This document shows, piece after piece, positions 26,099 to 64,000 of a stretch of DNA of 64,000 bases. The position numbers and the translations under genes are program-made. The stretch spans positions 4,836,001 through 4,900,000 of the forward strand of contig JAVHKY010000029.1 in the NCBI GenBank assembly GCA_035079385.1. The letters run 5' to 3'. The DNA comes from Aspidiotus rigidus (lineage: Eukaryota; Arthropoda; Insecta; Hemiptera; Diaspididae). Position 1 is the stretch's first letter; each line of letters opens with the position of its first letter. The notes below the pieces were generated by a model, which was given only the letters and a program-made list of their open reading frames with translations, was not told where the DNA came from and made no database searches.

Positions 26099-26345
26099 GC
26101 TCGAGAATCAAAATTTTTCCAATTCCCTCTCCTATCATATATGGCTCTAGAGTCGACATTTTTTCAAGTTTTTTGCTGGAAGGCGGACGGTGCACGGCAA
26201 ATTTCTCAAAAAGCCCCCCATAAAACAGGTTCCCTGTTGAAATTTTGACTCTCGAGCTATACATCATAGGAGGGGACTAGGAGAAATATTATTATGATAG
26301 AAGGGGGACTTGGAAATATTTCGACTCTCGAGCCATATATGATGA
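26099..26345. repeat. 45-bp repeat units
   Basis: Continuation of the split 45-bp unit plus the CCCCCCATAAAACAGGTTCC module, ending at the Penelope-like fragment. Confidence 0.7.
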
Positions 26346-26351
26346 AAAAGC

Positions 26352-26765: not shown

Positions 26766-27627
26766 TTCTTGTTGCCGGCCGGAGTTGGTTCAGTTGCTTT
26801 CACGTCCCCGTTGACAATGGTTTTTTAATCGAAACCGCTCCGGTGTATTTTCATTTCTGTGGCTCTATTCAAATTACTCCGTACGTTTTAATCGTTGAGT
26901 ATGTCGTCGTTAGAGGGGGGGGGGGGCTTGGAACAATTCCGACTCTCGGGTCATATATGATACAGGGAGACTTGGAAAAACGATACCTTCCCTAACAAAG
27001 CCAATCGAGGAACGCAGGGAACCTGTTCTATGAGTCAAATTGATTTTGCTGCCCCAGAACTTGTATAACGCTAGCATGAAGGAGGTCTTGACCTACTATA
27101 AACCTAGTATGAAATAGGGCGTCATCAGTGACCTGGGCCTATTTTAGGGACTTCGAGATATATAGCTAGGAGTTTGAAATCTTTGTAAATCCCCTTGCTA
27201 TCACACAAAGCTCAAGAGTCAAAATTTTAACAGAGAACCTGTTTTATGGGGGTTATTTGAAAAAAACGACGGCTTCCTTAACGAAGTTAAGCGAGGGACG
27301 CAGGGAACCTGTTTTATGAGTCATATGGGATTTGGTATTGAGAATTCAAGGAAGCCTAGACCTAGATGAAGCTAGTATAAAGAGGGCCTACATCTACTAT
27401 AAGCCTAGTATAATATGGTTTGAGAATCTAAATTTTTCTCGAATCTCCAGCTATATATTTTAGGAGGGGGACTTGAAAAAAATGTTGATTTTCGAGCTAT
27501 ATATGATAGAAGGGGGACTTGGAAAAATTCCTATCATACATGGGTCGAGAGTCAGAATTTTTCTGTTTTTTGTTAGATGGCACACGGCAAATTTCTCAAA
27601 AAGCCCCCCATAGAACAGGTTCCCTGT
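26766..27627. repeat. Composite repeats (45-bp units, CAGGGAACCTG module)
   Basis: Includes module starts near 26970 and 27262 (ACGACGGCTTCCTTAACG type), the GAATTCAAGGAAGCCTAGAC stretch and 45-bp units. The part from about 27262 is nearly the same as 35271-35595, so the two regions are related duplications. Confidence 0.7.
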
Positions 27628-28640
27628 TAATATAGCTTTCAACAGCCTACAACAATAGAGTCTACTACTGAATGATATTATAAGTAAGTATGGGTTGCGT
27701 GAGTGAATCAAAAAAGGTAAAAATTGAATCTAAACATGATACCTGCAGAGAATTGTTAGTTCGTACCCTTTTAATCCTATATTTTATTGTGTGTTTGTGT
27801 GAGTGTGTCAGCAACCTGTCTGTGTAAAATATGCTATTTTCCAATTCAATAGTTGAATCAACTCATTGGTCATTACTACGTTTTATCCTCAGAATAAGGT
27901 ATCATGTCCATTTTCACCTTTTAAAAAGCATATTTTACACATACAGGTTGCTGACACACTCACACAAGTACACAACAAAATATTACTTTCAACAGCCTGC
28001 AACAATAGAGTCTACTACTGAATGATATTATAAGTAAGTATGGGTTGCGTGAGTGAATCAAAAAGGGTAAAAATTGAATCTAAACTTGATACCTGCAGAG
28101 AATTGTTAGTTCATACCCTTTTAATACCATATTTTATTGTGTGCTTGTCTGAGTGTGTCTTCAGCCTGTATGTGTAAAATATGCTTTTTATAAGGTGAAA
28201 ATGGACATAATACCTTTTGAGGATAAAACGTAGTAATGACCAATGAGTTGATTCAACTATTGAATTGGAAAATAGCATATTTTACACAGACAGGTTGCTG
28301 ACACACTCACACAAACACACAATAAAATATAGGATTAGAAGGGTACGAACTAACAATTCTCTGCAGGTATCAAGTTTAGATTCAATTTTTACCTTTTTTG
28401 ATTCACTCACGCAACCCATACTTACTTATAATATCATTCAGTAGTATACTCTATTGTTGCAGGCTGTTGAAAGTAATATTTTGTTGTGTACTTGTGTGAG
28501 TGTGTCAGCAGCCTGTATGTGTAAAATATATTTTTTTAAAGGTGAAAATGGACATATTACCTTTTCAATTATGGAGATAAAACGGTATTCATTTTCACCT
28601 TTAAACAGCATATTTTACCCATACCACTATAAGCCTAGTA
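27628..28640. repeat. Palindromic satellite-like repeat, multiple inverted copies
   Basis: A unit starts CTTTCAACAGCCTACAACAA, passes GTATGGGTTGCGTGAGTGA and reaches a GTGTGTTTGTGTGAGTGTG block. It is present in forward orientation from 27630, again from about 27987, and inverted from about 28170 to 28480. It folds into arms of several hundred bases. The same unit occurs at 35594-36195. Confidence 0.8.
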
Positions 28641-28881
28641 TAATATAGTTTGAGAGTCTAAATTTTTCTCGAATCTCCAGCTACATATGATAGCTCGAGA
28701 GTTGAAATTTTTCCAAGTTTTTTGCTGGACGGCACACGGCAAGTTTCTCAAAAAGCCCCCCATAAAACAGGTTGCCTGTTAAAATTTGCCGTGGGCCATC
28801 CAGCGAAAAACTTCGAAAAATTTTGAATTCTATCGGATGAAATTTTCCAAGTCCATCCCCACCTATTATAAGCTTGGAGGT
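28641..28881. repeat. 45-bp units and GC-rich module flanking the LTR element
   Basis: 45-bp units and the AAAAAGCCCCCCATAAAACA module. The LTR element that follows is inserted inside a unit; its sequence resumes at 31967. Confidence 0.7.
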
Positions 28882-29009
28882 TGTAGTAACTCAGGAAATG
28901 AGAAATACGAACATGACTATCTCGGAAAGAGCTTGTATTTCAACTCATATTGATAAACGACTACAACGACTACGAATCTACTTATGATTACATTATCAGT
29001 GTTACCACA
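28882..29009 (-). repeat. 3' LTR of the gag-less element
   Basis: 128 bp, TG...CA ends. The pol stop codon (28988-28990) lies inside this LTR. Confidence 0.92.
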
Positions 29010-31837
29010 CTTCTCCCCCCATTAATAAAGATGGAAACAAAACAAAGGAAAATACATACAGTAAAACAGAGGGTGACATCAAAAAAAAAGGTCAAAAATA
29101 AAAAACAAGGAGAGAAAAAGAAAGAAAAAGTTTTCATTATTTGTGTGAGTTGTTGGTCAGGATATAGTCTAAACTTTGCTGGTTGTGTTCTTAAACGCCT
29201 GCTTTGACGGAGATGATCTGCATGTAAACGCAATGGTGGACCCCCGGCCATTGGCTTAGCTTGATACGATAAATCTCCAGTACGACGTTGAATATGAGCC
29301 TTCTGCCAGTTGGAGTCAACTTTTCTTCGAAACAAAACAGGTTCAGTTGGAGAGAAATGACGTTCACGTTTGTTTTGATTATGGTAGAGTTTCATCTTCA
29401 AGGCTTTTTGATCAGCGTAAGCTCGAAAATCAGGTTTAAGGGTAGAAATGAATGTCCTCACTTCACGACCCAGGAACAGGAAACTTGGAGTTTGGCCAGT
29501 GGATGAGTGGATGCTATTGCGATAGACAAAGAGCATTGCCTGCAGTCTGTGCTCAGGATCTGTAAATTGGTCCCCTGATTTCTTGTAGCGGAGTTTGAAA
29601 GTTTCTATAGCGCGCTCTACTAAACCATTTGAACGACTGTGATATGGTGTTGTGTGAATAAGGTTGATTCCATTGTCTTTGAGAAACTTATGAAATTCGT
29701 GGGACGTGAAAGATGTCCCATTATCTGCAACTACAGTATTTGGAAGTCCGTATCTTGCAAAGATTGTGCGAAGTGCTTGGATTGCGAGTGCAGTAGTTTG
29801 AGCAGGAAGACGGAAGATTTCCATCCAACGAGAGAAAGCATCAATGACTACAAGCCACATTTTACCATCAAATGGTCCCGTATAGTCAATATGTAACCGC
29901 TGCCAAGGCTTGTCTGGCATGTTCCATAAGTGTAACGGTGTGTCTGGCTCATTATTGTGGAATTTCTGACATGTTTCACACACATCTGCAATGTCTTCAA
30001 TATCTTTGTTGCAATTTGGCCACCAAACAGCAGTTTTGGCTATGTTTTTCATTGTAGAGGCACCAGGATGCGTTTCATGTAGTCTGTGAAGGAGTGGTTT
30101 ACGTAGCTTTTCAGGGATGACAATTCGATCATGCCATAGCAAAAGTCCCTCCTGGACTTGAAGTTCATCTCTTTTTGTATAGAATGTTTGTAAATCTGGA
30201 TGGTGCGCAGCATGCGTAGGCCAGCCTTGTAGGGTGTAGGACATAACTGGCTTCAGGATAGGGTCTGCTGCACTGTCTTGGACAATCTGTTTGTGTGATA
30301 GTGCAGTGTATTCTAGAACAACACAGTGAATCTGTGTGACTTTATTCTGTTCCGCTTCTTCAGGTGGAGATGGTTGCTGGGAAGTTAATGGCATCCGCGA
30401 TAGCGAATCAGCAAGGTTGTTGTCATCACCGGGTAAATACTCAATTTGGTACGCAAAGTTACTTAAATAGAGCGCCCATCGAGAAAGTCTGTTTGAAACG
30501 ACCTTTGGTAGGTCTGCTTTATTTCCTAATATATGAAGAAGAGGCCGATGATCTGTCCGAAGACGAAATTCTTTTCCCAGTAAATACTGTTCAAACTTTG
30601 ATACACCAAAAGTTATTGCTAGAGCTTCGCGGTCAATACTTGGATATTTCTGTTCTGATGGGAGCAGCGTCCTTGATGCTGCTGCAATTAGTCGCAAAGA
30701 TTTGTCTGGATATTCATGCTGCAAAGTTGCTCCTAGACCATATTCACTGGCATCCACAGTTAGAACTAAGGGTAGTTCTGGTTGGAAATGAACTACAATA
30801 GCATCTGTAGTGAGTGATGACTTGATTTTGTTAAACAGATCAGTGTCAGCTTCAGTCCAAGTCCACCGAGCATTCTTCTGAAGGTGTCTATGCAAAGGTG
30901 CACATTGCGCTTGTAGGAATGGCAAGAATCGAGAATAGTAGTTTATACTGCCTAAAAATGAGCGAAGCTGTTTTACATTTTTTGGAACTGAAAGTTCTTG
31001 AATTGCTGCAACCTTGTTTTCTTTAGGTATGATACCTTCAGCTGTAACCCGATATCCCAGGTATGAGATTTCTTTTTGGAAGAGGTGTAGTTTAGCAGCC
31101 TGTGTTCTGATGCCAAGGTCGTGTAGGCGTGTAAGTACTAACCGTAACCGATGTAAATGATCTTCTCTACTTTCCCCACCGAGCGCTATATCATCTTGAT
31201 ACCAGGTAACTCCTTGCATGTCCTTTAAAACGGTATCCATAAATTTCTGAAATATCGATGGCGCGGTTGTCACACCCATTGGCAAGCGTTTGTATCTAAG
31301 ATAACCTCGGTGTGTAGCTATCACAAAATATTTCTGGCACTTGGGATCTATACCCAGCTGATAGAATGCATCTTTCAGGTCAATAACGCTAAACTCTGTG
31401 TAAGGTGATAATTTTGATACTGCTTCTTCAAAAGTAGGTAATGGATACTTATTAACAACAATGTAGGGATTTATTGTATTCTTGAAATCACCGCAAATAC
31501 GTGGTTTACCGTTTGCACGCATCTCAATGACAACTGGTGACGCCCATTCTACTGTTTCAGTTTGTGTATCAACTGGTTCAAGAACACCAGCTGAAATCAG
31601 TCCATCATATTCTTTATCAACCTCATTTTTCCAGACGAATGGGACCGGACGGGCTCGGGCAATATATGGAACAGCATTCTTACGCACCTTGATGTTTGCT
31701 GAGAAATTCTTTATATGGCCATTGCCTTCAATTAGATCCTTAAACTCATTGATTATAAGCTTCTGGTCTTCTTCATCATCGTCTGATGGCTGAATATCTG
31801 CTACTTTCTTCTTTTTCTTAACCATCCTCGTCGCCAA
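28988..31837 (-). CDS. pol: Ty3-type Pol: reverse transcriptase, RNase H, integrase
   Basis: 949 codons, uninterrupted. It starts with a lysine run (MVKKKKKVADIQ) and goes directly into the RT region: AGVLEPVDTQTETVEWASPV, PRICGDFKNTINPY, FSVIDLKDAFYQL and the active site WYQDDIALGG (YQDD in place of the usual YxDD variants). RNase H follows (LTVDASEYGLGATLQHE, DREALAI, LRTDHRPL). The integrase has an H-H-C-C zinc finger (HETHPG, CETCQKF) and a D-D-E core (DYTGPF, VADNGTSF, NGLVERAIETF). Gag, the CCHC knuckle and the aspartic protease are absent. The C-terminus runs through a hydrophobic tail into the 3' LTR. Enzymatically it looks complete, but mobility would need Gag from elsewhere. Confidence 0.95.
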   Translation of the reverse strand: MATRMVKKKKKVADIQPSDDDEEDQKLIINEFKDLIEGNGHIKNFSANIKVRKNAVPYIARARPVPFVWKNEVDKEYDGLISAGVLEPVDTQTETVEWASPVVIEMRANGKPRICGDFKNTINPYIVVNKYPLPTFEEAVSKLSPYTEFSVIDLKDAFYQLGIDPKCQKYFVIATHRGYLRYKRLPMGVTTAPSIFQKFMDTVLKDMQGVTWYQDDIALGGESREDHLHRLRLVLTRLHDLGIRTQAAKLHLFQKEISYLGYRVTAEGIIPKENKVAAIQELSVPKNVKQLRSFLGSINYYSRFLPFLQAQCAPLHRHLQKNARWTWTEADTDLFNKIKSSLTTDAIVVHFQPELPLVLTVDASEYGLGATLQHEYPDKSLRLIAAASRTLLPSEQKYPSIDREALAITFGVSKFEQYLLGKEFRLRTDHRPLLHILGNKADLPKVVSNRLSRWALYLSNFAYQIEYLPGDDNNLADSLSRMPLTSQQPSPPEEAEQNKVTQIHCVVLEYTALSHKQIVQDSAADPILKPVMSYTLQGWPTHAAHHPDLQTFYTKRDELQVQEGLLLWHDRIVIPEKLRKPLLHRLHETHPGASTMKNIAKTAVWWPNCNKDIEDIADVCETCQKFHNNEPDTPLHLWNMPDKPWQRLHIDYTGPFDGKMWLVVIDAFSRWMEIFRLPAQTTALAIQALRTIFARYGLPNTVVADNGTSFTSHEFHKFLKDNGINLIHTTPYHSRSNGLVERAIETFKLRYKKSGDQFTDPEHRLQAMLFVYRNSIHSSTGQTPSFLFLGREVRTFISTLKPDFRAYADQKALKMKLYHNQNKRERHFSPTEPVLFRRKVDSNWQKAHIQRRTGDLSYQAKPMAGGPPLRLHADHLRQSRRLRTQPAKFRLYPDQQLTQIMKTFSFFFSPCFLFLTFFFDVTLCFTVCIFLCFVSIFINGGRSVVTLIM

Positions 31838-31838
31838 A

Positions 31839-31966
31839 TGTAGTAACTCAGGAAATGAGAAATACGAACATGACTATCTCGGAAAGAGCTTGTATTTCAA
31901 CTCACATTGATAAACGACTACAACGACTACGAATCTACTTATGATTACATTATCAGTGTTACCACA
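31839..31966 (-). repeat. 5' LTR of the gag-less element
   Basis: 128 bp copy of 28882-29009. The pol ATG lies one base downstream on the minus strand, so the leader is nearly absent. Confidence 0.92.
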
Positions 31967-32156
31967 GAGGTCGACATTTTTCTAACCCTCTATGCTATCA
32001 CAATATAGCTCGAGAGTCCAGAAAAATTGAGACTCGAACTATATTATATTAGGCTTATAGTACGTCTAGCCTTCTTTATACTAGCTTTATACTATTTCTA
32101 AATCCTCCTCACATCATATATAGCTTGGAGGTCGAATTTCTTTCAAATCCCTTTCC
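31967..32156. repeat. 45-bp repeat units resumed after LTR insertion
   Basis: Starts with the right GAGGT duplication and continues the interrupted unit. Confidence 0.7.
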
Positions 32157-32514
32157 TATTGGGATGTTAACCTACGTTTGGTAGCGCTAGAATCGCCTTC
32201 CTCTCTTGCCGCACTCACTTAAATTTCTGGGTGACGATTTTACGTTCAATGTATTTGGCCATGAGAATCGAGATTTTCAATTAGTCGTAGGTGACTCAAT
32301 ACTTCATTATTAAAATTACTTCTTTCAGTTATCGATTCTCTTGAAGTGTTTAAACGAATTATAGGACATAATTTTTCGAAATACAAATTGTAATCATTTA
32401 AATCGTGTTTGAAAATTGCGAATTCCGCATCATGAAGCATGGTACGTTGAAATTATCCCCCACATCTTCGAACACGGCTACCAACTTACGCAACTTAGGT
32501 TAACATCCCAATCA
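32157..32514. mobile_element. Possible MITE with inverted ends
   Basis: Ends ATTGGGATGTTAACCTACG and, inverted, ATTGGGATGTTAACCTAAG (about 19 bp, one mismatch). No clear target duplication. A 64-codon minus frame inside (MLHDAEFAIFKHDL...) is not recognised. Confidence 0.5.
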
Positions 32515-32630
32515 CATATCTGCCGTGTGTCATCCGACGAAAAACTTCGAAAAATTTAGACTCCTATTGTATAGCTTGGAGGATGAAACTTTTTCAAGTC
32601 CCCCTTCTACCATAATATAGCTCGAGAGTT
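32515..32630. repeat. 45-bp repeat units at the edge of the broken gene
   Basis: Two or three units. The last breaks off at AGCTCGAGAG, directly before exon-like sequence. Confidence 0.65.
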
Positions 32631-32633
32631 CCC

Positions 32634-33322
32634 AAAAAGATTACGAAACGATTCAAAAAGAATTGGTAAGTACTAGGACGTCGTGAATAATTTTTCAGAG
32701 TATTTTTCTAACAATAGTGAGAAAATTTCGTTCGAACGAATTAATTCTTAGCTTCCAATGTTTTCTCTTACAAAGTGGGTATATACGAATAATGATACGG
32801 AATTCATAATATTAATTTTGAAAAAATAACTGCGAACGTTTTTTTTTTTTTTTCTCTCGACGAAAATTTATTTCTTGGCTTTCTCAAGACGTTCGAATCT
32901 CGAACGTTCGAAATCTCTTACCAATTCTATAAGTACGAATAATGCAGGCTAATTTGAGTTATCATTATTTCCAGGAAGAAGTAGTGAAGAAAGAACTCTG
33001 GTTCCATACTCAGTTAAGACTGAGACGTAATATGGAGAAAATGTGAGTTACTAACGAAGCCACCGGACACCGAAACCAACGATTGGTTAGCAGTTACTAG
33101 ATTTGAAAAGTGGACATTATTTTTCAGCGGAGAAGAAGATTATGGCTTCATATAATTCAAGAATTGCGTAAAATATGTATCAGAAGATGTAGCTGTGCTC
33201 GCGAAGCACATGAATCGTTTGTATGGGGTTCTAAATTCAAGGATTGAAGAGATATCACTTGAACCTTTCCGTGAAGAGGAGTGGAACACTATCGCCCATT
33301 GTCTGGACAGAGTGGAAGTTTA
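32634..33322 (+). pseudogene. Truncated gene remnant with an in-frame stop
   Basis: Three exon-like pieces with GT-AG borders and matching phases: about 32634-32666 (QKDYETIQKEL), about 32975-33042 (EEVVKKELWFHTQLRLRR) and about 33128-33322. The third reads GEEDYGFI, then TAA, then FKNCVKYVSEDVAVLAKHM, then IEEISLEPFREEEWNTIA and a final stop. The frame continues well past the TAA for 64 codons, so the stop looks like a mutation. The 5' end is replaced by 45-bp repeats. The predicted protein is helical and charged. I do not recognise the family. Confidence 0.5.
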
Positions 33323-33330
33323 ATATACTA

Positions 33331-34296
33331 TACTAGCGGTTGGCGACGCGCCTCCGGCGCGCCTGACCGCTAGCTGTGTGTTGAGTAGATATCTGTGTTT
33401 TATAGGTATCTGTATCTTGTAGGTATGTGTGTTTTGTAGGTATCTTGGAATTCAGATGAATTTTTAAAAAAGAAACAGTGGAAAGAGTTTTGCAAAATTC
33501 ACAACTATTCAGTTCAAAAATAAGAAAATAGACACCAAAAACTGCGACTGTACTTATAAAAATATATCAAAGTTCCGAGTCGCACAAAAATAAAATCACC
33601 AAATTAAATTTTTTACACACTAATTCACTTGAGAGCTGACTTAACGCGTGAAGCCTGTATTCATCGCAGCAGAATACAGACAAATCCATTGACATTTTAC
33701 CAGTCCCTAAGAAAACACACGGACAACAGGTAAAAAAAAGGGTAATTTCCGCTAGCCCATACGCAGTGCGCACCGTGTCTAGACATTGGTTCTTGTATGA
33801 GATACCGGATGTAAAATCCTTTATGTAGGTGTTTTTAAAACTGTGAATAAAATAACTTGCTTAGTATGGAAGTACAGCGAATACTGTAGTCACAAAATTT
33901 CCTCCTAAAAATCTGGAACCGGGCTCATTCGAAAGGAAATTACAGGGGCTACAATTTTTGTTCTCTTCAATTTTTCATAAAAATGAGTTATACTCGAGTT
34001 ATCACAATAATTCAATTTTCGAAACGGCGCCACTCAACGCGCGTAGGTCTAACGTACAGCGCAAAGCAGTTTCAGTACTCGATAATGCCCGTTTTTCCTT
34101 TATATTGAAAAAAGTCATTGTTTTCGCCCTTTTTTGAAATTACTCAGCACCTCCCCGTCAAATTTTTATTTTTATGAGTCTATGTGCTGCTCTGGGATGA
34201 GGACAATATATCCTGAAAGTTTGAAAGCGATCGGCCCAGTAGTTCTCGAGTTATAAACGGACGGACGGACAAACTTTCTGCTTTATATATTAGATA
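33331..34296. mobile_element. Dispersed element starting TACTAGCGGT, ending in GGACGGAC and TATATTAGA
   Basis: The left end holds a GC-rich hairpin, CTAGCGGT ... ACCGCTAG, enclosing GCGCC/GGCGC. The right end has GATCGGCCCAGTAGTTCTCG, ACGGACGGACGGACAAAC and then TATATATTAGA. This overall layout is common among repeats in arthropod genomes. I cannot assign the class (RTE-like, SINE-like or other) from sequence alone. Target duplication not determined. Confidence 0.5.
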
Positions 34297-35270
34297 CGGT
34301 ATCATTTTTCATTTCGAGAAGATATTATTTTGTTACGTTATTGTTATATTTTTTAAATTTAATAAAGTTTTTATGTTTTGTTACTACCTACTTATTTATT
34401 CATTGTATGTAGAAGGAAAATTTGAGTTCATATTTTCAGTGATGAAATGACGTCTGCCGGTCGGAGAAGTTAGTAAACAGTCAAGCTTGTCTCTTTTCTA
34501 TCAGTACAATCGGGTACATTTACGTAGAGCATGAGACAGATTTGAAATATGTTAATCAGAATTTTCAACCATGATGTCATGGTCGATGAATTTTTGTTCG
34601 ATTTCAAATTCTTTCAATGATTCACAAAAGTAAGGATGGATTTTTATTTCTTGGCAGACACATTGACTTAGTGTGTTCACAGAACCCAGAAAATTGCAAA
34701 AAGAATGAGAGTGAACTGAAAAATGAATTTCAATGTCATATAATCTAGCATACAATACATCTAGAGAAAACGTCGCCGTGTACCTATTTATATGCGTATT
34801 TACCTTCCTCTTAAGAATTGTGCGATGAAAGAAGATTGTAACGTTACAAGATCCTTCTGTAGACACAGTTTAGGGAATGTACCTACTTTGTATAGGACCC
34901 ATTTATTTTAGCATGATAATTATGAAACTTGGAAAAGTAATACGAGTAAATCATCAGCAGCTTATTATTGAAACAGTCCCCATTGAAGCTTGGTGAACGT
35001 ACTGAAAAAAGGTGAGTCTAGATCTTCGGACTTGAAACCATAGAGAATGGAATGCTGGAATTTCGGTTGAGTAATGGTAAACTAAATATGATACAGGTTT
35101 TGAATAGTAGTACTTATTAAATGCGAGCAAAAATTTTTTACAAGCAACTGCGTCGCACCTCCTAGATTGAAATTTTTACCAGCTTAGAAAGTTTACTTGC
35201 GATGGTTTCTTTAAAAAACAATAGAAATTTGATACAAAAGTTCTAAAATTTTCGCATCAGTGGAGAAGAA
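34297..35270. other. No gene recognised
   Basis: AT-rich. A 104-codon minus frame (34552-34866) has no recognisable domain, and I see no splice context that supports it. Confidence 0.4.
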
Positions 35271-35593
35271 AAAACGACGGCTTCCTTAACGAAGTTAAGC
35301 GAGGAACGCAGGGAACCTGTTTTATGAGTCATATGGGATTTGGTATTGAGAATTCAAGGAAGCCTAGATCTAGATAAAGCTAGTATAAAGAAGGCCTACA
35401 CCTACTATAAACCTAGTATAATATAGTTTGAGAGTCTAAATTTTTCTCGAATCTCGAGCTATATATGATAGAAGGGGGACTTAGAAAAATTCGTATCATA
35501 CATGGCTCGAGAGTCGAAATTTTTCTGTTTTTTGTTAGATGGCAAACGGCAAATTTCTCAAAAAGCCCTCCATAGAACAGATTCCCTGTTAAT
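35271..35593. repeat. Composite module, near duplicate of 27262-27627
   Basis: Begins ACGACGGCTTCCTTAACG and runs through the AAGCCTAGA segment and 45-bp units to the palindromic satellite, in the same order as 27262-27627. Confidence 0.75.
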
Positions 35594-36195
35594 ATAGCTT
35601 TAAACAGCCTACAACAATAGAGTCTACTACTGAATGATATTATAAGTAAGTATGGGTTGCGTGAGTGAACCAAAAAAGGTAAAAACATGATACCTGCAGA
35701 GAATTGTTACTTCATACCCTTTTAATCCCATATTTTATAGTGTGTTTGTGTGAGTGTGTCAGCAACCTGTATGTGTAAAATATGCTATTTCCCAATTTAA
35801 TAGTTGAATCAACTCATTGGTCATTACTACGTTTTATCCTCAAAAGGTATTATGTCCATTTCCACCTTATAAAAAGCATATTTTACACATACAGGTTGCT
35901 GACACACTCACACAAACACACAATAAAATATGGAATTAAAAGGGTATGAAGTAACAATTCTCTGCAGGTATCATGTTTAGATTCAATTTTTACCTTTTTT
36001 GATTCACTCACGCAACCCATACTTACTTATAATATCATTCAGCAGTAGACTCTATTGTTGTAGGCTGTTGAAAGCTATATTTTGTTGTGTACTTGTGTGA
36101 GTGTGTCTTCAGCCTGTATGTGTAAAATATGCTTTTTATAAGGTGAAAATGGACATAATACCTTTTGAGGATAAAACGTAGTAATGACCAATGAA
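35594..36195. repeat. Palindromic satellite-like unit, second locus
   Basis: Starts TATAGCTTTAAACAGCCTAC; arms of about 190-200 bp meet around 35,820 and the inverted arm ends CTGTTGAAAGCTATA near 36081. Same unit as 27628-28640. Confidence 0.8.
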
Positions 36196-38345
36196 GCCTA
36201 GTACAATATAGTTTGAGAGTCTAAATTTTTCTCGAATCTCCATCTATATTATGATAGCTCGAGAGCCGAAATTTTTCCAAGTTTTTTGCTGGACGGCGCA
36301 TGGCAAATTTTTCAAAAAGCCCCCCACAAAACAGGTTCCCTGTTAAAAAACGACGGCTTCCTTAACGAAGTTAAACGAGGAACGCAGGGAACCTGTTTTA
36401 CGAGTCAAATAGGATTTGGTATTGAAAATTCAAGGAAGCCTAGACCTAGATAAAGTTAGTATAAAGAAGGCCTAGACGTAAAATAAGCCTAGTATAATGT
36501 AGTTCGAAAGTCCAAGTTTTTCTCAAATCTCGAGCTATTTATGATAGGAGGGAGACTTGGGAAAATTTGTCCCCTATCATATATAGCTCGAGAGTCAAAA
36601 GTTTTCCAAGTCCCTCTTCTATCATATATAGCTTCAGATTCGAAATTTTAACAGGGAACCTGTTTTATGGGGGGCTATTTGAGAAATCTGCCGTGCGCCG
36701 TCCACCGAAAAACTTAAAAAAATTTTGACTCTCGAACTATATATGATAGAAGGGGGACTTGAAAAAAATTTCGACTCTCGCAGATCAACTAATACAAATG
36801 TAGCTCGAGAGTCGAAATTTTTCCAAACCTCCCTCCTATCATATATAGCTCAAGAGTGGAAATTTTAACAAGGAACCTGATTTATCCAACTATATTATAT
36901 TACACGAATAGTTGGTCTAGGCCTTCTTTTTACTACCTTTCTCCAAATCTAGGCTTCCTTGAATTTTCAATACCAAATCTCATTCGAATCATAAAACAGG
37001 TTCCCTGCGTTCCCCGTTTAACATCGTTAAGGAAGCCATCATTTTTCTAAGTCCCTCTCCTATCACATATGGCTCGAGAGTCGAAATTTTTCCAAGTCCC
37101 TCTCCTATCATATATGGCTCGAGGGTCGAAATTTTTTCCAAGTCCCCCTCCTATCATATATTCTCGAGAGTCGAAATTTTAACAGGGAACCTGTTTTATG
37201 GGGGGCTATTTGAGAAATCTGGCGTGCGCCGTGCGCCGTCCGCCGTCCGGCGAAAAACTTGGAAAAATTTCGACTCTCGAGCCATATATGATAGGAGAGG
37301 GACATAGAAAAATTTCGACTCTCGAGCTATATATGATAGGAGAGGAACTTAAAGAAATTTCCACTCCCGAGCTATAAATGATAGCAGGGGGACTTAGAAA
37401 AATTTCGACTCTCGAGCTATATATGATAGAAGGGGGGACTTGGAAAAAATTCGACTCTCGCGCCATATGTGATGGGAGAGGGACTTAGAAAAAATTTCGA
37501 ATCTGAAGCTATATATGATAGAAGAGGGACTTGGAAAACTTTTGACTCTCGAGCTATATATGATAGGGGACAAATTTTCCCAAGTCTCCCTCCTATCATA
37601 AATAGCTCGAGATTTGAGAAAAACTTGGACTTTCAAACTACATTATACTAGGCTTATTTTACGTCTAGGCCTTCTTGATACTAGCTTTATCTAGGGTCTA
37701 GGCTTCCTTGAATTTTCAATACCAAATCCTATTTGACTCATAAAACAGGTTCCCTGCGTTCCTCGTTTAACTTCGTTAAGGAAGCCGTCGTTTTTCTAAG
37801 TTTTTCGCTGGACGGCGGACGGCGGACGGCGCACAGCGCACGGCGCACGGCAGATTTCTCAAATAGCCCCCCATAAAACAGGTTCCCTGTTAAAAAATGA
37901 CGGCTTCCTTAACGAAGTTAAACGAGGAACGCAGGGAACCTGTTTTATGATTCGAATGAGATTTGGTATTGAAAATTCAAGGAAGCCTAGATTTGGAGAA
38001 AGGTAGTAAAAAGAAGACCTAGACCAACTATTCGTGTAATATAATATAGTTGGATAAATCAGGTTCCTTGTTAAAATTTCTACTCTTGAGCTATATATGA
38101 TAGGAGGGGGGTTTGGAAAAATTTCGACTCTCGAGCTATATTTGTATTAGTTGATCTGCGAGAGTCGAATTATTTCCAAGTCACCCCTCCTATCATCTAT
38201 AGCTCGAGAGTCGAAATTTTTTCCAAGTCCCCCTTCTATCATATATAGCTCGAGAGTCGAAATTTTTCCAAGTTTTTCGCTGGACGGCGGACGGCGCACG
38301 GCAGTTTTCTCAAATAGCCCCCCATAAAACAGGTTCCCTGTTAAA
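36196..38345. repeat. Nested giant inverted repeat of composite modules
   Basis: Several nested inverted pairs share a centre near 37.1-37.5 kb. Examples: 36346-36600 with about 37560-37797; 36650-37055 with about 37890-38345; GC-rich stretches near 37195-37260 with 37795-37880. Components are the CAGGGAACCTG-bounded module, a GCCGTCCGCCGTCC-type stretch and 45-bp units. No coding frame. The RNA would form a hairpin of hundreds of base pairs. Confidence 0.8.
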
Positions 38346-40020
38346 ATAGGGAGAAATGATCCACAATTGCTTTAAAAACAGCTAAATATCCAATGAGAAG
38401 AATTAAGGAAATTCAACATTTTTTTTTTGTAGAATCAGGAAAATTTAACGATTTTTTTCAAAGAATTAGGAAATTTAACAAATTTTTCGAGGGTTAAAAA
38501 ATGAGCTCAGCGCATAGAAAAATGGGGTTTACGCTCAGTAGCCTAGAACATACATGTCTTCAAATTTTAATAAAATATATAAATTTTTCTACCAAATCTC
38601 AACTTTTTCTCAATTTTTTCATTTTTTAAAAATTGTCTTCAAAAATCTGAAAAATCACACCAAAAATGGTGCGTAGCGTATAGTGACGCTCAACAGTAAT
38701 TTCTAAATATTAATAAAATATATACATTTTTCTACCAAATCTGCACTGTTTTTAATTTTCTCATTTTTAACTGTCTTCCAAAAACCTGAAAAATCATCCT
38801 AAAAACGACGTTGGCAAATTTTTAAATCAACCAAAAAAAACAATACATCCATCAAAAACTTCAAAAATCACTTAAAACTTACCAAACAAAAGCCCTCTTA
38901 AAAATTGCCTCCATCAAAAACTTTGAAAATCACTTGAAAATGTGAAAAATTAACCCCTACGCTTTTTTGAGATTTTTAAAATTCAATGAAAAATCAGAGA
39001 AATTAGCCGCAAAATGAAAGAAATTAACCCCTGCGCTACACTGCGCCAGAAAAATATCTTATAGCTATCTATTAAAAAAGGTGAAAAATCGAAAAATCAG
39101 TGACTATGTAGAATTTTTTTCAAGATTTTAAAACTACTGGAAAATGAGTGAAAAATGCAAAAAAAAAAAAATGTGACTGCGCTTGACTACGTCAGAAGGA
39201 ATATGACTTCAAATTTTAATAAAATCCTACAAAATCTCCACTTTTTCTCAATTTTCTCATTTCTAAAACTGTCTTCAAAAACCTAGAAAATTGCAAAAAA
39301 CTAGTGACTGCGCTTGACTGCGTCAGAAGGAATCCTCTCATATTTGTATTAAAAATAGTTAAATATTCACGAATTGGAAGATTTCGAGAATTTTCAAAGA
39401 AGTTGAAAAATGGGTAAATTTTGCTCTGCGCTAGAGAAACAGATCCTTTTGCTTCTTTTTGAGATTTTTAAAATTCAATGAAAAATGAGAAAAATTTGCC
39501 TCAAAATGAGAGAAACAAGTCCTTGCGCTTCTGTTTAGGATTTTTAAAATTATATGAAAAATGCGAAAAAATAGCCTTAGAATGTTGAAAATTAGCCCTC
39601 TGCGATTCTTCTTAGGATTTTTAAAATTGAATGAAAAATGACAGAAATTAGTCTCTGCGCTTGACTGCGCCAGAAAAAATATCTTATATATGTTAAAAAT
39701 TGATACAAAAATGATACAAAAGATCTGAAATTTTCGAACTAGTGGAGATAAAAAAAGAGTGAAATTATTCATTATTTACCACGAAAATATCAAAATAGAC
39801 AGAGTGAAAAATGGAAGATTTCTAGGTTTTTTTTTGGAGAGGTTGAAAAATGGGTGAATTTTACTCTGCGCAAGAGAAATGAGGAAGTGCGCCAGAAGGA
39901 AAAATTTGAATTTCTTACATTTTTATGAGTATTGGAAAGTAGCTCTCACGAGAGATTTATTTTATGGTAAAAATATAGAAAATTGATACAGAATTGATAC
40001 AAAAACTCTGAAATTTTTGA
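38346..40020. repeat. AT-rich degenerate repeats with a TGCGCTTGACTGCG motif
   Basis: Loosely repeated blocks of about 150-250 bp built from AAAAATGAGAAAAATT, TCAAATTTTAATAAAAT and the marker GCGCTTGACTGCGTCAGAA (near 39190, 39310 and 39660; variants elsewhere). Frames here are low-complexity artefacts. Confidence 0.6.
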
Positions 40021-57500: not shown

Positions 57501-60283
57501 CAATCTTCTTTCATGGTATCTAGGTCGACTGAATCGATTATAGGACAAGATCTTAGTAACTTCATGGTTTCCTCGATCAACTTCTTACGATCTTCTGACG
57601 GACCCGAGGGAGCTGAAATGAATGATGGCATTCATAATTTCCACCCTTGGAATATATTCTAGAATAATACTTCGTACTTACCTTTTTTAAGGGGAGTTAT
57701 TAACACCATATTCCACGATCGTTCGAAACACGATAAATCCAAAGTATGAGATAGATTGGTCAAGCTCGGTAATATTTCCATCAAGTCTTTTACCTAGTTT
57801 TCATTCGTTACATTAGTCCTAATATCAGTTCGAGTCTCAGAAATTTATCCTTGTAAGAAATCTTACCATTTCGTGAAGGCACATTTCCATCAGAATATTA
57901 TTCCATACAACACTCGATGTGATACCGAAATATTGACAGATGCGAGCGGCCAAGCGAAAAGCGGTCTTATTTTTCAAAGCTAATACGCACTTGACAACTT
58001 CTAATTTATTGCACGAAGTGAACGATTCCATTGTGTACGTCAACCCGAGTATTTCCAACTCAGTTACGAACTCTAGTCTACTCATATAATCCCTGAAGAC
58101 GAGAAGATATAGGTTAGAAAAACCTTTATTGAATTGATTTGTCAAGACAAAGGAATACCTTAATTTTTCGATGGTGCTCCCTATAACTTGTTCCAGAACA
58201 TCTTTGCCCGTGACAGAGAACAGGCATCGCAAAGCTCGAATACGAACATATGTCGGCTTCGAGTCGTCGGTATTCTGATCAAAGACAATTTTCACTAGAT
58301 ACGGACCCAATGTTCGTAAATCTCCTTCCACGATGTAACACGCCCTAGATTTTGATACCTCATAGTACATATGTGCGTAGATGTTAGATATATTAGATAC
58401 AATTTATTCCCATGATTTACTTGAGGAAATTTTCACGATCGGTGGTTGAAAATGGATCTTGAAGAAGGTCGTCATCCTGTAATCTATGAGGACATTCGCT
58501 GTACGAAACGTTTACCATGAAGTTTTCTGGTAACAGCCACTCTTCCAGCAAGTCCAGTTTGATTTTGTTCAGATTTTGTCGGTGGAGTTTACCTATCTCT
58601 TCGGCCGCTTTATTTATATCTACAATGATATAATAAAGAAATAAGTAAGGAGCTAAAATTTTTATGGAGAGTTGGTTGATAGGTGAAAACTCGCCTGGGA
58701 ATAAAAGTATATTGCCGGAATTTCGTTCTAATATGATAGGGTCGTTGTACAGAGCCTTTATTAATTCCACGGGCTTCAGCACCAGTTGCAAATATTGTGG
58801 TTTGCCGAGTTCGTGAACGTAGAGAACATGCGTTGTAGATATAGTTAAATATTTTGAATAGCACTACATTGACAGAAGAGCACAGACAAGTTACTGATTA
58901 GCGAGTTTATGATCTAATATCCAGCGCAACCAATGTACTCACTTTATTAAAACCAGCAGTTGCTTTCTCTGATGGCTCCGTCTCTAGCCACTTCTTAGCT
59001 TGCACGAAACATAGTTTAGCTGCCATCAACTGGTCAGCACCTGATTTGACCAAGATGGTATTTTGATAGAAAAACAACATCCCAGAAATAATAATTATTA
59101 ATCCCTATAATTGCCTTACCAGGAGGTAAATGGTTCATAACATAGTACAGAGAAGCGGATGCCATTTCCAAACTGTCGATGTTATCGATGCACGTTCGCA
59201 CATCGGCTAGTAATTTTTGATGTCGAGAGTGGATGCACCATTTTACTTCCGAATTTTCCGTTAGAGTTTGTTCGGATGTCTGAAAAAAGATGAATAGTAC
59301 ATTTCTGTCTTAAATTTAAGAGGAGAAAATTAAAGGGGGTCGTACCATTTGATGAACAGCGAACGAACATAGAGTATTTTTGTCCAATTCCAGCGCATCC
59401 AATACAGTAAACCATTTAGAATAAGTGCGGATGGTCAGTTCTGGTGCTATAAAAACAAAAATTGAAAGGTGATAATCGGTACTCGATTCAGTTGAATCAT
59501 AAATTAGTCCGTGACGCGCAACTAACTGATTATTTTCCAGGGATCGCTATTCGATTTCGTCCATTTCGAAAATATTAATCTGAACGGTAATCGATGCTCG
59601 GAAATGGGAGGTAGGGGCTGGGTATTCTGATGCAGTTGGCACCAATGTTCTTTCTCGTAGTCTTGAGGTTTTCTGGAAGAAAATAATGTATTAATGCCTA
59701 ACAGAATAATTGATAGATCCGTCGAATTATAGTCAATAGAATATTTACGCTATTCTATGGTACGTTGATAAGAATAAGAAAACGTGACGATAGGTGCTGA
59801 ATATCGCGTTAGAGGGTCGAAAGATGTTCTCCTCCATCAGCGTTAGTAACACCAAATATACTTCGTAGTAATAGTAGTTTATCTGAAACAGTCAATCAAG
59901 GCCCTCGTAAGTATTTTCTCGTTTCGATACGATGTAGGCTGCGTTTATTTGAACGTACAGAATCCCAAATACTGTTGGAAATTAATTCTGAAAGTTCTTG
60001 ACGATTTTCAATGAGGCTTATGATCTCCAGACATTTATTCAGTAAGCATTTCTGCGTATTTTTCATAATGATTTCTGTAAATAGAAAGAAAATTCGTGAT
60101 AATGACAGGCGCGTACAGAAATTTCCTATGAGGCATTATCCTCCTTAGCCCTTCTTTTCGGCGTGCGCCTACCTCATGAGCTTGAATCATAAGTACAACG
60201 AAGATTAATGGACAACGTTTTGCAATGTGGTAGGCTGTAGAGTGTAGACTATCAATAATTTGGAAGAATAGTCCTGAAGGCTC
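57446..60283 (-). CDS. KNTC1: KNTC1/Rod C-terminal part (RZZ kinetochore complex)
   Basis: Probable C-terminal third of Rod, the large subunit of the Rod-ZW10-Zwilch complex that holds Spindly, dynein and Mad1 at kinetochores. Exons run from about 60273 down to 57446. 60074-59959, 59882-59749, 59672-59527 and 59446-59346 chain in phase, followed by 59280 on. Helical sequence with family-like pieces: HRLPFRLIFSKWTKSNSDPW, ASASLYYVMNHLPPGADQL, HVLYVHELGKPQYLQLVLKP, VELIKALYNDPIILERNSG, INKAAEEIGKLHRQNLNKIK and LDLLEEWLLP. The most upstream exon (60283-60173, FFQIIDSLHSTAYHIAKRCP) does not join the next one in phase by simple GT-AG splicing, so an extra exon or a defect is possible. The 5' part of the gene lies beyond the LTR element. 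Confidence 0.6.
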
Positions 60284-60354: not shown

Positions 60355-60736
60355 TGTGGCGTTCTGCTATAATAGCAGACACCGCAAGGAAGCGTACTTA
60401 TCGCTTAACTACTTCGCCGAATACGCTTGAACAACCTAGAACGTGCTCGATTGATTGTAAGGGCTCTTGCATAACCTGTTTGCCGTTCTAGAAGAAATCT
60501 CGAGAATTCCGGAAATAAGGGTGAGACTATAAATAGCCGGCAGCAACCCGATAAAGCGATTCAGTTGTAATCTTAAAAGCGATAGTTAACGTGTTCTCGT
60601 TCTTTAACGCGATTGTGTTACAGTTTAACGGTGTTTAGAAGTGTTGTACTTGCGGTACCAGTAATAAAGCTCGGTTTTCGTAATTGTTCTTTATTATTGG
60701 CGTCAAGAGATATTCAGTGACTGGTAGAACGTCACA
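60355..60736 (+). repeat. 5' LTR
   Basis: 382 bp by TG...CA ends and the PBS position. The right boundary depends on that convention. Confidence 0.85.
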
Positions 60737-60800
60737 ACTGGTGTCAGAAGTGGGATTGCGTAAGCCTACTTTCTGCGTTTGAAACTGGTGGTGATTCAAG

Positions 60801-63800
60801 ATGGTGAAGAAGAAGTTTCATGAACTTACTCGGGATCAACTCCGCGAGGAACTCCGGAATCGTAACCTCTCTGTTAGCGGAACCAAAAATGAATTAGCCG
60901 ATCGTCTGGAAAAAGCATTCGAAGACTCGGGTTTGGACGTGGCCAATTTTGAATTTGAGGTTGACGAGGCTACTGGAAACCTTGGGACTGGTACGCCAAC
61001 AAAGCAGTCTCCAGCCATAGATTTGAGTGCAATGCTGCAAATGTTGACCGATACAATGGCTAAAAATTCAGAAGATCTGAAGACTGGGTTTACTGCAATG
61101 GAGGAGAAATTTGAACGGAACAAGAACGCAGTGGAGGAGAAACTCGAACGGAACAAGAACGCAGTGGAGGAGAAACTCGAACGGAACAAGAACGCGATGG
61201 AGGAGAAGCTCGAACGGAATAAGGCAGAAATCTTTGATGGGCTCAGAGAGACTATCGATGTTGAGGTTAAACGCCAAATTGAACCAATCCAACATCAGGT
61301 TGAGGGAATCCAACAGGAATTTGGGCAACAATGGAAAATTATAGAGGAACGACTTCAAAGACTGGAAGGAAATCCAACAGTAAGCATGGTTGTGGATCCG
61401 CCAGGCGTTACTTTTTTCAGTTCTGGACCTAATGAAGGAAACATACCAGTTACGGAACCATCAAAGGCCAAAGTCAAAATACCAACATTTGATGGCGAGA
61501 TCTCTTGGGAACTGTATAAATCACAGTTTGAAATTGCAGCTCAACTCAATGGATGGGATGACAAAGCCAAGGCTGGTAATTTGATTGTCAGCTTGAGAGG
61601 AGCTGCACTACAGCTGCTGTCCAACATTGCTGAGGGTGATAAGAAGAATTACCAGAAGTTGGTTGAGGTCCTTGAACAACGCTTTGGTCAAGCTCACTTG
61701 GCTCCCATCAGGAGAAGAGAACTGAAATACCGTCGACAGAACCATGGAGAAAGTCTTCAAGCGTTTTCAAGTGAAATCCTAAAATTAACTCACCAAGCTT
61801 ACCCAGAAGCTACTATGTCAGCCATTGAACAAACTGCGCTTGAGGCATTCATTGATGGAATATTTGACTGGGAGGTTCAGAGTCAAGTTCGCATTGCGCG
61901 TTGCAAAACCTTGAAAGAAGCATTATCCTTTGCCCTGGAAGTAGAAGCTGCAAGAAAGGCGTCTTGTAGACGAGGTTCCACAAATTTGAAGCAAACAAAG
62001 GTCAGACCAACTGGAGACAAACGTCGATGCTACCACTGTGATGAAGAGGGTCACATCAAGCTCAGTTGCCCTAAGTGGAGATCACTGCAAGGTGGAAAAC
62101 TCGAACCTGGAGTTGCCAGGGGCCAACCAACTCTAGGGCCAAGGAGAAGGGCCCAAGAAATAAGAATTTCCAAAATGCGTACTTCAGGTGAGAACGTTTA
62201 TGTATCGGGATGGAATGATAGTATTGGACGCAATATAGACATGTGCATGGACTGCGCTGCTACTGGTTCAGTTATCAAGACACAATTGGTCAAGGACATC
62301 CCAGGCTTATCCATTAATTGGAGAGAAAAATACCGCCTCAGGACTGCCATGGGTGAACAAGCTTGGACCAAGGGCACTGTTGAGCTATCTATCAAGATTT
62401 CCTCAATGGTAATAACTGGAAAATTCATCCTTGCTGATATCGAAGATGACTGTATTCTGGGGCTGGATTTAATGCGAAAGTATGGGTTGATTATTGATCT
62501 GAAACATGACCTTTTAAGAAGTCCCTGTGGAGATATACCACTTTATGAGTTGGAAGCCAAGGATTGTCTCCTCCAGACCAAAGTTGAAGAAGAACTAAGC
62601 ACTGTAGTCAATGACGTGAAGAAAGAAGTCTCAGTGAAATCCATACAACTAGGTTCCAATGTGGATATGAGAAATGCTCAACAACAGGATAAAGATATTT
62701 CGGTCATCTTAGCCTGGAAGGAGAAAGGTGAACGACCAGTCTGGCAGGATATCAGCTCGCAGTCGGTAAATTTAAAGATTTTATGGTCACAATGGGACTC
62801 GCTTCAAGTAGAAAATGGAATTGTTTACCGGATCTGGGAAACAACAGATGGCAGATCAGACCGGCGTCAACTACTGATACCTGAAGCACTTGTTCCGGAT
62901 GTCTTGAAGAGTGTTCATGATGACGCATCTGGTAGTCATCTTGGAATAACAAAAACATTGGCCAAGATTCGGGAACGGTTTTACTGGCCAGCCTGTAGAA
63001 GTGATATAGAGGATTGGATTCAATGTTGCAGAACATGTAATGCCAGTAAGGGGCCCAATACTAGGGGCCGAGCTAAGATGCAAATCTACAATGTGGGATA
63101 CCCTTTTGAACGGATTGCGGCAGATATCTCAGGACCATTTCCAGAAACTGACCAAGGTAATCGTTATATTCTAGTAGTAGGAGATTACTTCAGCAAATGG
63201 ATGGATGCTTACCCACTGCCAAATTGTGAAGCCGTCACTGTTGCAACAGCGCTGGTGGAAAACTGGATTTCAAGGTTTGGAGTACCTCTGGAGTTACACT
63301 CAGACCAGGGAAGAAACTTTGAATCCCAGGTATTTGGAGAAGTGGCTAAGCTGATGGGATTGAGGAAAACTCGTACAACACCACTCCACCCACAATCTGA
63401 TGGTATGGTCGAGAGGTTCAACAAAACAATAGACCAATTCCTATCCAAAGTAATTGATAGTGACCAGCGGAATTGGGACAAGCTACTTCCATTGTTCCTG
63501 CTAGCCTATCGGTCTTCAATCCATGAGAGCACCAAGGAAACACCTGCAAAAATCATTTTTGGAAGAGAACTTCGATTACCGTGTGATTTAGAGCTGGGCA
63601 CCCCTCCTCAGCCACCTCAAGAAGTCAAGCCATTCACACAAGAACTGAAGAACCGACTTAAGCAGGTACATGAGCTGGTCAGGGAAAATTTAGAAGTTGC
63701 TAGCGACCGGATGAAGGCACGCTATGACATCTGTGCAGATGAAACCAAGTTTGAACCTCAGGATAGGGTGTGGTTCTACAACCCACAGAGAAAGAAAGGG

Positions 63801-63962
63801 AAGAACCCAAAATTACAGTGCAATTGGGAAGGACCTTGGACAGTCGTGAAGAGAATCAACGATGTCATCTATCGCATCCAACAGGACAGAAAGTTCAAAG
63901 TAGTCCACCGAAATAGACTAGCTGTATGGAGTCCGGCGTTTGAACGGGACGTTCAAAACTGA
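60801..63962 (+). CDS. Gag-protease-integrase polyprotein lacking RT and RNase H
   Basis: 1053 codons, no break. A SAP domain comes first (residues about 5-40: LTRDQLREELRNRNLSVSG, TKNELADRLEKAF). Four 11-residue repeats follow (VEEKLERNKNA, about 100-142), a hendecad coiled coil. The capsid-like Gag region starts at IPTFDGEISWELYKSQFE and ends near ALEVEAARKAS. Next is one CCHC knuckle (CYHCDEEGHIKLSC) and a retropepsin-like domain whose active site reads MDCAATGS in place of the usual DTGA/S, though ILGLDLM is kept. The protein then passes from about residue 600 directly to the RNase H-integrase linker and integrase: H-H-C-C (HDDASGSHLG, CCRTCNA), core (ADISGPF, HSDQGRNF, DGMVERFNKT). RT and RNase H are absent. 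Confidence 0.93.
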   Translation: MVKKKFHELTRDQLREELRNRNLSVSGTKNELADRLEKAFEDSGLDVANFEFEVDEATGNLGTGTPTKQSPAIDLSAMLQMLTDTMAKNSEDLKTGFTAMEEKFERNKNAVEEKLERNKNAVEEKLERNKNAMEEKLERNKAEIFDGLRETIDVEVKRQIEPIQHQVEGIQQEFGQQWKIIEERLQRLEGNPTVSMVVDPPGVTFFSSGPNEGNIPVTEPSKAKVKIPTFDGEISWELYKSQFEIAAQLNGWDDKAKAGNLIVSLRGAALQLLSNIAEGDKKNYQKLVEVLEQRFGQAHLAPIRRRELKYRRQNHGESLQAFSSEILKLTHQAYPEATMSAIEQTALEAFIDGIFDWEVQSQVRIARCKTLKEALSFALEVEAARKASCRRGSTNLKQTKVRPTGDKRRCYHCDEEGHIKLSCPKWRSLQGGKLEPGVARGQPTLGPRRRAQEIRISKMRTSGENVYVSGWNDSIGRNIDMCMDCAATGSVIKTQLVKDIPGLSINWREKYRLRTAMGEQAWTKGTVELSIKISSMVITGKFILADIEDDCILGLDLMRKYGLIIDLKHDLLRSPCGDIPLYELEAKDCLLQTKVEEELSTVVNDVKKEVSVKSIQLGSNVDMRNAQQQDKDISVILAWKEKGERPVWQDISSQSVNLKILWSQWDSLQVENGIVYRIWETTDGRSDRRQLLIPEALVPDVLKSVHDDASGSHLGITKTLAKIRERFYWPACRSDIEDWIQCCRTCNASKGPNTRGRAKMQIYNVGYPFERIAADISGPFPETDQGNRYILVVGDYFSKWMDAYPLPNCEAVTVATALVENWISRFGVPLELHSDQGRNFESQVFGEVAKLMGLRKTRTTPLHPQSDGMVERFNKTIDQFLSKVIDSDQRNWDKLLPLFLLAYRSSIHESTKETPAKIIFGRELRLPCDLELGTPPQPPQEVKPFTQELKNRLKQVHELVRENLEVASDRMKARYDICADETKFEPQDRVWFYNPQRKKGKNPKLQCNWEGPWTVVKRINDVIYRIQQDRKFKVVHRNRLAVWSPAFERDVQN
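61101..61232 (+). repeat. 33-bp tandem repeat inside gag
   Basis: Four units, nearly identical, encoding MEEKFERNKNA / VEEKLERNKNA (x2) / MEEKLERNKAE. The low divergence suggests recent replication slippage. Confidence 0.9.
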
Positions 63963-63973
63963 GGAGGGGAAAG

Positions 63974-64000
63974 TGTGGCGTTCTGCTATAATAGCAGACA
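63974..64000 (+). repeat. Start of 3' LTR
   Basis: 27 bases identical to 60355-60381; continues past the window. Confidence 0.9.

What the first reader, a model, noticed from the sequence alone, without database searches (positions are those of the whole stretch)
60355..64000. LTR element with Gag, protease and integrase but no RT/RNase H
The 1053-codon frame runs from the protease straight into the RNase H-integrase linker with no stop or frameshift. This is the reciprocal of the element at 28.9-32.0 kb. Intact frame, hendecad repeats and matching LTR starts suggest a maintained derivative rather than a decayed one. The LTRs of the two elements differ, so cross-complementation is speculative.
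Basis: partly seen in the sequence, partly recalled or inferred. Interest (0 to 1): 0.8.

Follow-up and report, generated by a model that had tools for sequence, protein, structure and literature searches.

The report
Jumping gene missing its reverse transcriptase
A retrotransposon in what is probably an animal genome still codes for its shell protein and integrase in one unbroken reading frame but has cleanly lost its reverse transcriptase, so it could move only with a relative's enzyme; this is a new variant of a known sort of dependent mobile element.

Summary
Window 60355-64000 is a Ty3/Gypsy-type element: 5' LTR, PBS-like site, one 1053-codon ORF, polypurine tract and 27 bp of a 3' LTR. 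The ORF encodes SAP-Gag, protease and integrase, but no RT or RNase H. RT-bearing relatives place the join near residue 610 (nt about 62622-62639): left side matches the segment before RT in P0227, right side the RNase H-integrase linker of P0033; about 470 residues are missing in frame. Integrase looks intact (1 of 89 conserved positions changed). The protease motif reads DCA; 86 of 88 rows covering it read DTG. Hendecad repeats also occur in P0227, so they do not show maintenance. Other families of the clade seem to have lost RT separately; four Cordylochernes gene models share one junction. Most likely this is a non-autonomous deletion derivative mobilised in trans, comparable with mouse IAP 1-delta-1. 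The RT-integrase element at 28.9-32.0 kb is real, but of another family.

The parts
60355..60736 (+). 5' LTR (about 382 bp, TGTG...CACA)
   Evidence: 27-bp terminal repeat with 63974-64000; 3' end placed by the CACA before the PBS-like site, read from the sequence
60528..60535 (+). TATAAATA box in the LTR
   Evidence: string match
60561..60566 (+). TCAGTT initiator-like motif, probable start of R
   Evidence: string match; role recalled
60663..60668 (+). AATAAA polyadenylation signal
   Evidence: string match
60739..60755 (+). primer-binding-site-like sequence TGGTGTCAGAAGTGGGA, 2 nt after the LTR
   Evidence: read from the sequence; tRNA-Leu-type assignment is recalled, not tested
60801..63962 (+). 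single 1053-codon ORF, Gag-protease-integrase
60819..60923 (+). SAP domain at the Gag N-terminus (residues 7-41)
   Evidence: Pfam PF02037, E 1.4e-9
61095..61223 (+). 33-bp tandem repeat, 3.9 copies (hendecad repeat of Gag)
   Evidence: similar 11-aa repeat in RT-bearing P0227
62028..62069 (+). CCHC zinc knuckle CYHCDEEGHIKLSC (residues 410-423)
   Evidence: position; motif read directly, no Pfam hit
62226..62477 (+). retropepsin-like protease domain with altered active-site motif DCAATGS at 62250-62270
62622..62639 (+). deletion junction: segment that precedes RT in P0227, joined to the RNase H-integrase linker
62877..63929 (+). integrase: H2C2 zinc domain, DDE core, C-terminal p58-like domain
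63961..63973 (+). polypurine tract GAGGAGGGGAAAG, directly before the 3' LTR
   Evidence: read from the sequence
63974..64000 (+). first 27 bp of the 3' LTR (cut by the window end)

Best explanation
This is a non-autonomous, internally deleted copy of a SAP-Gag Ty3/Gypsy element. SHOWN: relatives with RT exist (P0227 carries a similar SAP-Gag joined to RT; P0033 carries RT, RNase H and integrase), and this copy lacks about 470 residues of RT-RNase H in frame while keeping the 5' LTR, PBS-like site, polypurine tract, Gag and integrase. INFERRED: the deletion arose during reverse transcription by a jump between short matching stretches, as the junction of the comparable pair P0074/P0094 suggests. 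The LTR promoter makes one RNA; it is translated into a Gag-protease-integrase polyprotein, packaged in particles together with Gag-Pol of an RT-bearing relative, copied by that relative's RT and inserted by either integrase. Gag and integrase stay useful on the element's own RNA, while RT, and perhaps protease, can come from outside.
For: Structure and absence of RT. Junction mapped from both sides: WIN 590-613 against P0227 434-457 (0 of 2000 shuffles as good) and WIN 607-1043 against P0033 509-946. Nearest integrases: RT-bearing P0033 and integrase-only fragment P0123 (support 98/90 and 98/98), so on that tree the loss lies on this element's own branch. Integrase constrained: 1 of 89 near-invariant positions changed; the median of the RT-bearing reference rows is 2.2%. 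The same kind of loss in other families: P0074 (15 member sequences) is 98% identical to RT-bearing P0094 over its last 457 residues and joins at a shared QGI; four Cordylochernes proteins share one junction and the variant HSNADA, where their near RT-bearing kin P0010, P0015, P0021 and P0028 read HNNADA. The element at 28.9-32.0 kb is a recent insertion that now lacks Gag (127 of 128 LTR bases identical, 5-bp duplication), which suggests that incomplete elements get mobilised here, unless it lost Gag after inserting.
Against: Only one copy was seen; host-genome copy number is unknown (18 of 18 searches unanswered). The protease motif is altered and only 1 of 42 RT-bearing rows deviates as much in protease, which fits decay as well as trans-dependence; the contrast with integrase is statistically weak (Fisher p 0.10 and 0.042 at two thresholds). 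Other RT-less relatives look less constrained in integrase: P0157 6 of 89, P0155 7 of 89, P0052 4 of 89, P0175 4 of 86 positions changed, at or above the 90th percentile of RT-bearing rows, while P0066 and P0073 have 0 of 89 and P0074 1 of 89. No RT-bearing element with this LTR was seen. Several RT-less relatives are gene models that may hide RT in a predicted intron.
Confidence: 0.6

Rival explanations
1. A once full-length insertion lost RT-RNase H by a chance in-frame deletion in place after it had inserted; the copy is a young fossil and was never mobilised in its RT-less form.
For: Single copy seen; two of three protease active-site residues changed; one deletion in three keeps the frame by chance.
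Against: 1053 codons without a stop and 1 of 89 integrase positions changed need the event to be recent; the join lies in inter-domain stretches on both sides; relatives hold RT-less forms that look amplified.
Confidence: 0.22
2. Assembly or splicing: the RT segment was collapsed or lost in assembly, or the copy is a reverse-transcribed spliced RNA of a full-length element.
For: No reads or parent sequence could be examined; the finding is one locus.
Against: The junction keeps the frame and lies between domains; the window has no N; RT-less open frames also occur in the unnamed jgi and ena records P0066, P0073 and P0074.
Confidence: 0.12
3. A split retroelement: one RNA brings Gag-protease-integrase, a partner RNA of the same SAP-Gag family brings Gag-RT without protease, and both are packaged together.
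For: P0227, the one protein returned by the Gag-alone search (59% identity over the Gag alignment), runs from the zinc knuckle into RT with no protease between: the reciprocal defect.
Against: P0227 is one protein on a 2326-bp metagenome contig, ending inside RT, from an unknown and diverged host; its missing protease may be just another deletion; the window's protease motif is altered too.
Confidence: 0.04
4. A host gene domesticated from a Gag-integrase element.
For: Intact ORF; Gag-integrase proteins annotated as uncharacterized proteins in flies (P0052, P0157, P0175).
Against: LTR, PBS-like site and polypurine tract are present, and the 27 visible bases of the 3' LTR are identical to the 5' LTR; the fly proteins fall in another part of the integrase tree.
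Confidence: 0.02

Closest known systems
Mouse IAP 1-delta-1 subtype
   Same: In-frame internal deletion gives a fused ORF; non-autonomous, needs Gag and Pol in trans; [quoted passage not shown] passages read)
   Different: Mouse endogenous retrovirus; its 1.9-kb deletion removes part of gag and pol, whereas here RT and RNase H are removed and Gag, protease and integrase kept; amplification is not shown here
RLG_Quinta / RLG_Cereba pair of wheat
   Same: Gag-coding partner without RT, proposed to be cross-mobilised by an autonomous element with shared LTR ends and PBS (PMC11302176; abstract and passages)
   Different: Quinta lacks integrase as well; a plant element; the partner is known there and not here
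Tos17 of rice
   Same: Incomplete element that nevertheless transposes (PMC3977881; abstract)
   Different: Copia type; lacks gag, closer to the 28.9-32.0 kb element of this window
Ty3/Gypsy elements named 'K02A2.6-like' or 'transposon 412' in arthropod records, with P0033, P0134 and P0227
   Same: Integrase about 41-62% identical in the listed hits, same Gag plan, SAP-Gag in P0227
   Different: The full-length members carry RT and RNase H (P0227 ends inside RT)

Membership tests
LTR retrotransposon, Ty3/Gypsy (Metaviridae) | LTRs with TG...CA ends, PBS and polypurine tract | tested here: inconclusive
   5' LTR, PBS-like site and PPT read directly; only 27 bp of the 3' LTR lie in the window
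LTR retrotransposon, Ty3/Gypsy (Metaviridae) | Integrase of the Ty3 type, with homologs in which RT precedes integrase | tested here: met
   H2C2, rve and p58_C; Ty3 Gag-Pol among the PDB matches; RT-bearing relatives
LTR retrotransposon, Ty3/Gypsy (Metaviridae) | Reverse transcriptase and RNase H | tested here: not met
   No Pfam hit; tblastn with RT-bearing relatives finds none in 60-64 kb. Hence filed as a defective derivative, not as an autonomous member
Non-autonomous deletion derivative mobilised in trans (like IAP 1-delta-1) | In-frame internal deletion relative to an RT-bearing relative | tested here: met
   Junction mapped against P0227 and P0033, which are diverged relatives and not the parent
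Non-autonomous deletion derivative mobilised in trans (like IAP 1-delta-1) | Several copies at different sites with the same junction | not tested
   Own-genome search unanswered 18 times
Non-autonomous deletion derivative mobilised in trans (like IAP 1-delta-1) | An autonomous partner with matching LTR ends and PBS | not tested
   No RT-bearing DNA of this family was obtained; the 28.9-32.0 kb element has other LTRs
Catalytically competent retropepsin | D-T/S-G active-site triad | tested here: not met
   DCA in the window; of 88 rows covering the motif, window included, 86 read DTG and one other reads DTS; 35 rows do not cover it. Activity itself not testable here

The most novel reading that the evidence does not exclude
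A split LTR retroelement: within one SAP-Gag Ty3 family, protease plus integrase travel on one genome (this element) and reverse transcriptase on a partner genome that has lost protease (as P0227 has), so that neither moves alone; RT-less Gag-integrase forms that seem to have arisen repeatedly in this arthropod-rich clade would be stages of the same division of labour.
Probability: 0.05. Interest if true: 0.85.

Novelty: new variant of a known kind. Interest (0 to 1): 0.42.

Why it matters
Known dependent LTR elements mostly keep only non-coding ends, only Gag, or everything but Gag (recalled, apart from the papers cited). Here the one enzyme that defines retroelements is gone while Gag and integrase stay open, and relatives suggest that this happened several times. 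If confirmed by copies with the same junction, it would say which proteins must be made in cis and which can be borrowed, a question that the cited mouse IAP and wheat work also raises.

Tried and rejected
Shared RT-less lineage: SAP-bearing RT-less proteins of flies (P0052, P0157, P0175) looked at first like one old RT-less family with the window element. The integrase trees place them with RT-bearing P0134 and the window element with RT-bearing P0033; one origin of RT loss is therefore not supported. I did not run a formal one-clade test, and the bootstrap had not fully settled.

Hendecad repeats as a sign of maintenance: rejected, since RT-bearing P0227 has an 11-residue repeat in the same part of Gag.

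Fly and pseudoscorpion proteins as firm proof of RT-less genomic copies: held back, because gene models can skip RT as an intron; P0175 lacks pieces of Gag and of the integrase zinc domain in a way that looks like that, and P0024 is fused to an upstream transposase-like part.

Scans of viral contigs and genome contigs gave no useful relative; the seven weak integrase loci were not pursued. Rfam and tRNA scans of the window found nothing, so the PBS could not be matched to a local tRNA. Literature searches showed no described Gag-protease-integrase LTR element without RT, judged from the listed titles and abstract starts only; the library lacks most subscription papers. The Achilles paper (PMC4580426; abstract and passages) concerns a BEL/Pao element and was set aside.

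The host organism was not identified: a Rod_C domain and a weak Tudor match in the window and arthropod-rich relatives suggest an animal.
Full report
What is there. The window's last 3.6 kb hold an LTR retroelement: an LTR of about 382 bp (60355-60736) with TATA box, initiator-like motif and AATAAA, a PBS-like site at 60739, one ORF of 1053 codons (60801-63962), a polypurine tract that begins inside the stop codon, and 27 bp of the 3' LTR identical to the start of the 5' LTR. The window ends there, so LTR-to-LTR divergence and a target-site duplication cannot be measured.

What the ORF encodes. Pfam gives SAP at the N-terminus, a weak retropepsin below its curated cut-off, and the H2C2, core and C-terminal integrase domains; no RT or RNase H. 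The best PDB matches are foamy-virus integrase and Ty3 Gag-Pol (60 of 105 shown). tblastn with three RT-bearing relatives finds their RT part only in the element at 28.9-31.9 kb.

Relatives. Three protein searches were run, each scoring only the roughly 8000 candidates that share most words. With the whole ORF (484 matches, 120 listed) and with its protease-integrase part (1594 matches, 120 listed) the named relatives are mostly from spiders, a pseudoscorpion and insects, a few from other animals, some labelled as a fungus or bacteria (perhaps host DNA), and many unnamed; listed identities run from 41 to 62%. With Gag alone one protein was returned, P0227: 59% identical over the Gag alignment, also with SAP and an 11-residue repeat, running directly into RT without protease and ending inside RT on a 2326-bp contig. 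Gag matches of the other relatives aligned are 26-45% identical.

The junction. WIN 590-613 aligns with P0227 434-457, the segment just before its RT (score 62, 0 of 2000 shuffles of the P0227 piece reach it; BLAST E 0.005). WIN 607-1043 aligns with P0033 509-946, the RNase H-integrase linker and integrase. P0227 439 corresponds to P0033 27. WIN residue 609 thus corresponds to about P0033 41, and residue 610 to about P0033 512: some 470 residues (1.4 kb) are missing, in frame. A weaker match of WIN 572-604 to P0033 1-36 agrees (12 of 2000 shuffles reach the score of the tested pieces). P0227 and P0033 are diverged relatives, not the parent.

Where RT was lost. In an integrase tree of 227 proteins (FastTree) and in a 60-row IQ-TREE with 28 chosen and 32 randomly drawn RT-bearing rows (bootstrap not fully settled), the window element groups with RT-bearing P0033 and the integrase-only fragment P0123 (98/90 and 98/98), on long branches. 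RT-less fly proteins group with RT-bearing P0134, P0074 with P0094, P0155 with P0130 and P0012, and the Cordylochernes forms with their RT-bearing kin. RT thus seems to have gone missing several times in this clade, with the gene-model caveat. Of 27 RT-less relatives longer than 520 residues I aligned 16 with the window protein (13; P0175, P0157 and P0155): 15 keep Gag or protease upstream of integrase in one protein; P0008 has the order reversed and is probably two elements read together. The other 11 may include plain fragments.

Does an RT-less form spread? The best evidence is from relatives. P0074 (15 member sequences) is 98% identical to RT-bearing P0094 over its last 457 residues and 93% over 132 protease-side residues, and joins at QGI, present on both sides of the missing part, as template jumping would leave; the 15 members may partly be one locus in several assemblies. 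In Cordylochernes, P0031, P0060, P0077 and P0118 (contigs of three different lengths) share the junction NVMD-R(P/S)GRKH and the variant HSNADA; the near RT-bearing proteins P0010, P0015, P0021 and P0028 read HNNADA, though seven RT-bearing proteins elsewhere also read HSNADA. A fifth RT-less form of that group, P0088, has another junction. P0020 and P0024 join at a QQ run, one Q apart. These are gene models; shared predicted introns are a caveat.

Constraint. In integrase, 1 of 89 positions that are at least 95% conserved in 101 non-redundant RT-bearing rows is changed; other RT-less relatives range from 0 of 89 (P0066, P0073) to 7 of 89 (P0155). In protease, the active-site motif is DCA; of 88 rows covering it, window included, 86 read DTG and one, RT-less P0155, reads DTS; 35 further rows do not cover it. 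RT-less P0074 and P0175 keep DTG. At the 90% threshold 3 of 14 protease and 9 of 125 integrase positions deviate (Fisher p 0.10); at 95%, 2 of 13 and 1 of 89 (p 0.042). This hints at relaxed protease, but weakly.

The neighbour. The element at 28.9-32.0 kb encodes RT, RNase H and integrase only, has 128-bp LTRs with one mismatch and a 5-bp duplication ACCTC, and so is a recent insertion that now lacks Gag. It belongs to another Ty3 family (30% integrase identity) and has other LTR ends; it suggests that incomplete elements move in this genome but is no obvious partner.

Verdict. Observation confirmed. Compared with IAP 1-delta-1, Quinta and Tos17 (passages or abstracts seen) it is a new variant of a known kind.

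Noticed in passing
28877-31971 (- strand): Small LTR element with RT, RNase H and integrase but no Gag or protease; LTRs 127 of 128 identical, 5-bp target duplication ACCTC: a recent insertion that now lacks Gag.
   Followed up: partly
P0227 (metagenome protein; no window coordinates): SAP-Gag relative that runs from the zinc knuckle straight into RT with no protease between, the reciprocal loss to the window element.
   Followed up: partly
window 62250-62270, and protein P0155: The two rows whose protease motif departs from DTG (DCA and DTS) are both RT-less; the other 86 rows covering the motif, some of them RT-less, read DTG.
   Followed up: partly
24400-38350: Many related direct and inverted repeats with units of about 45 bp that contain CTCGAG, scattered over 14 kb on both strands; nature not determined.
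   Followed up: no
57837-58370 (- strand): ORF matching the Rough deal (Rod) C-terminal domain, E 3e-10, perhaps an exon of a host kinetochore gene.
   Followed up: no
60363-60379 and 63982-63998: The LTR has a near-perfect palindrome (CTGCTATAATAGCAG) just inside its start.
   Followed up: no
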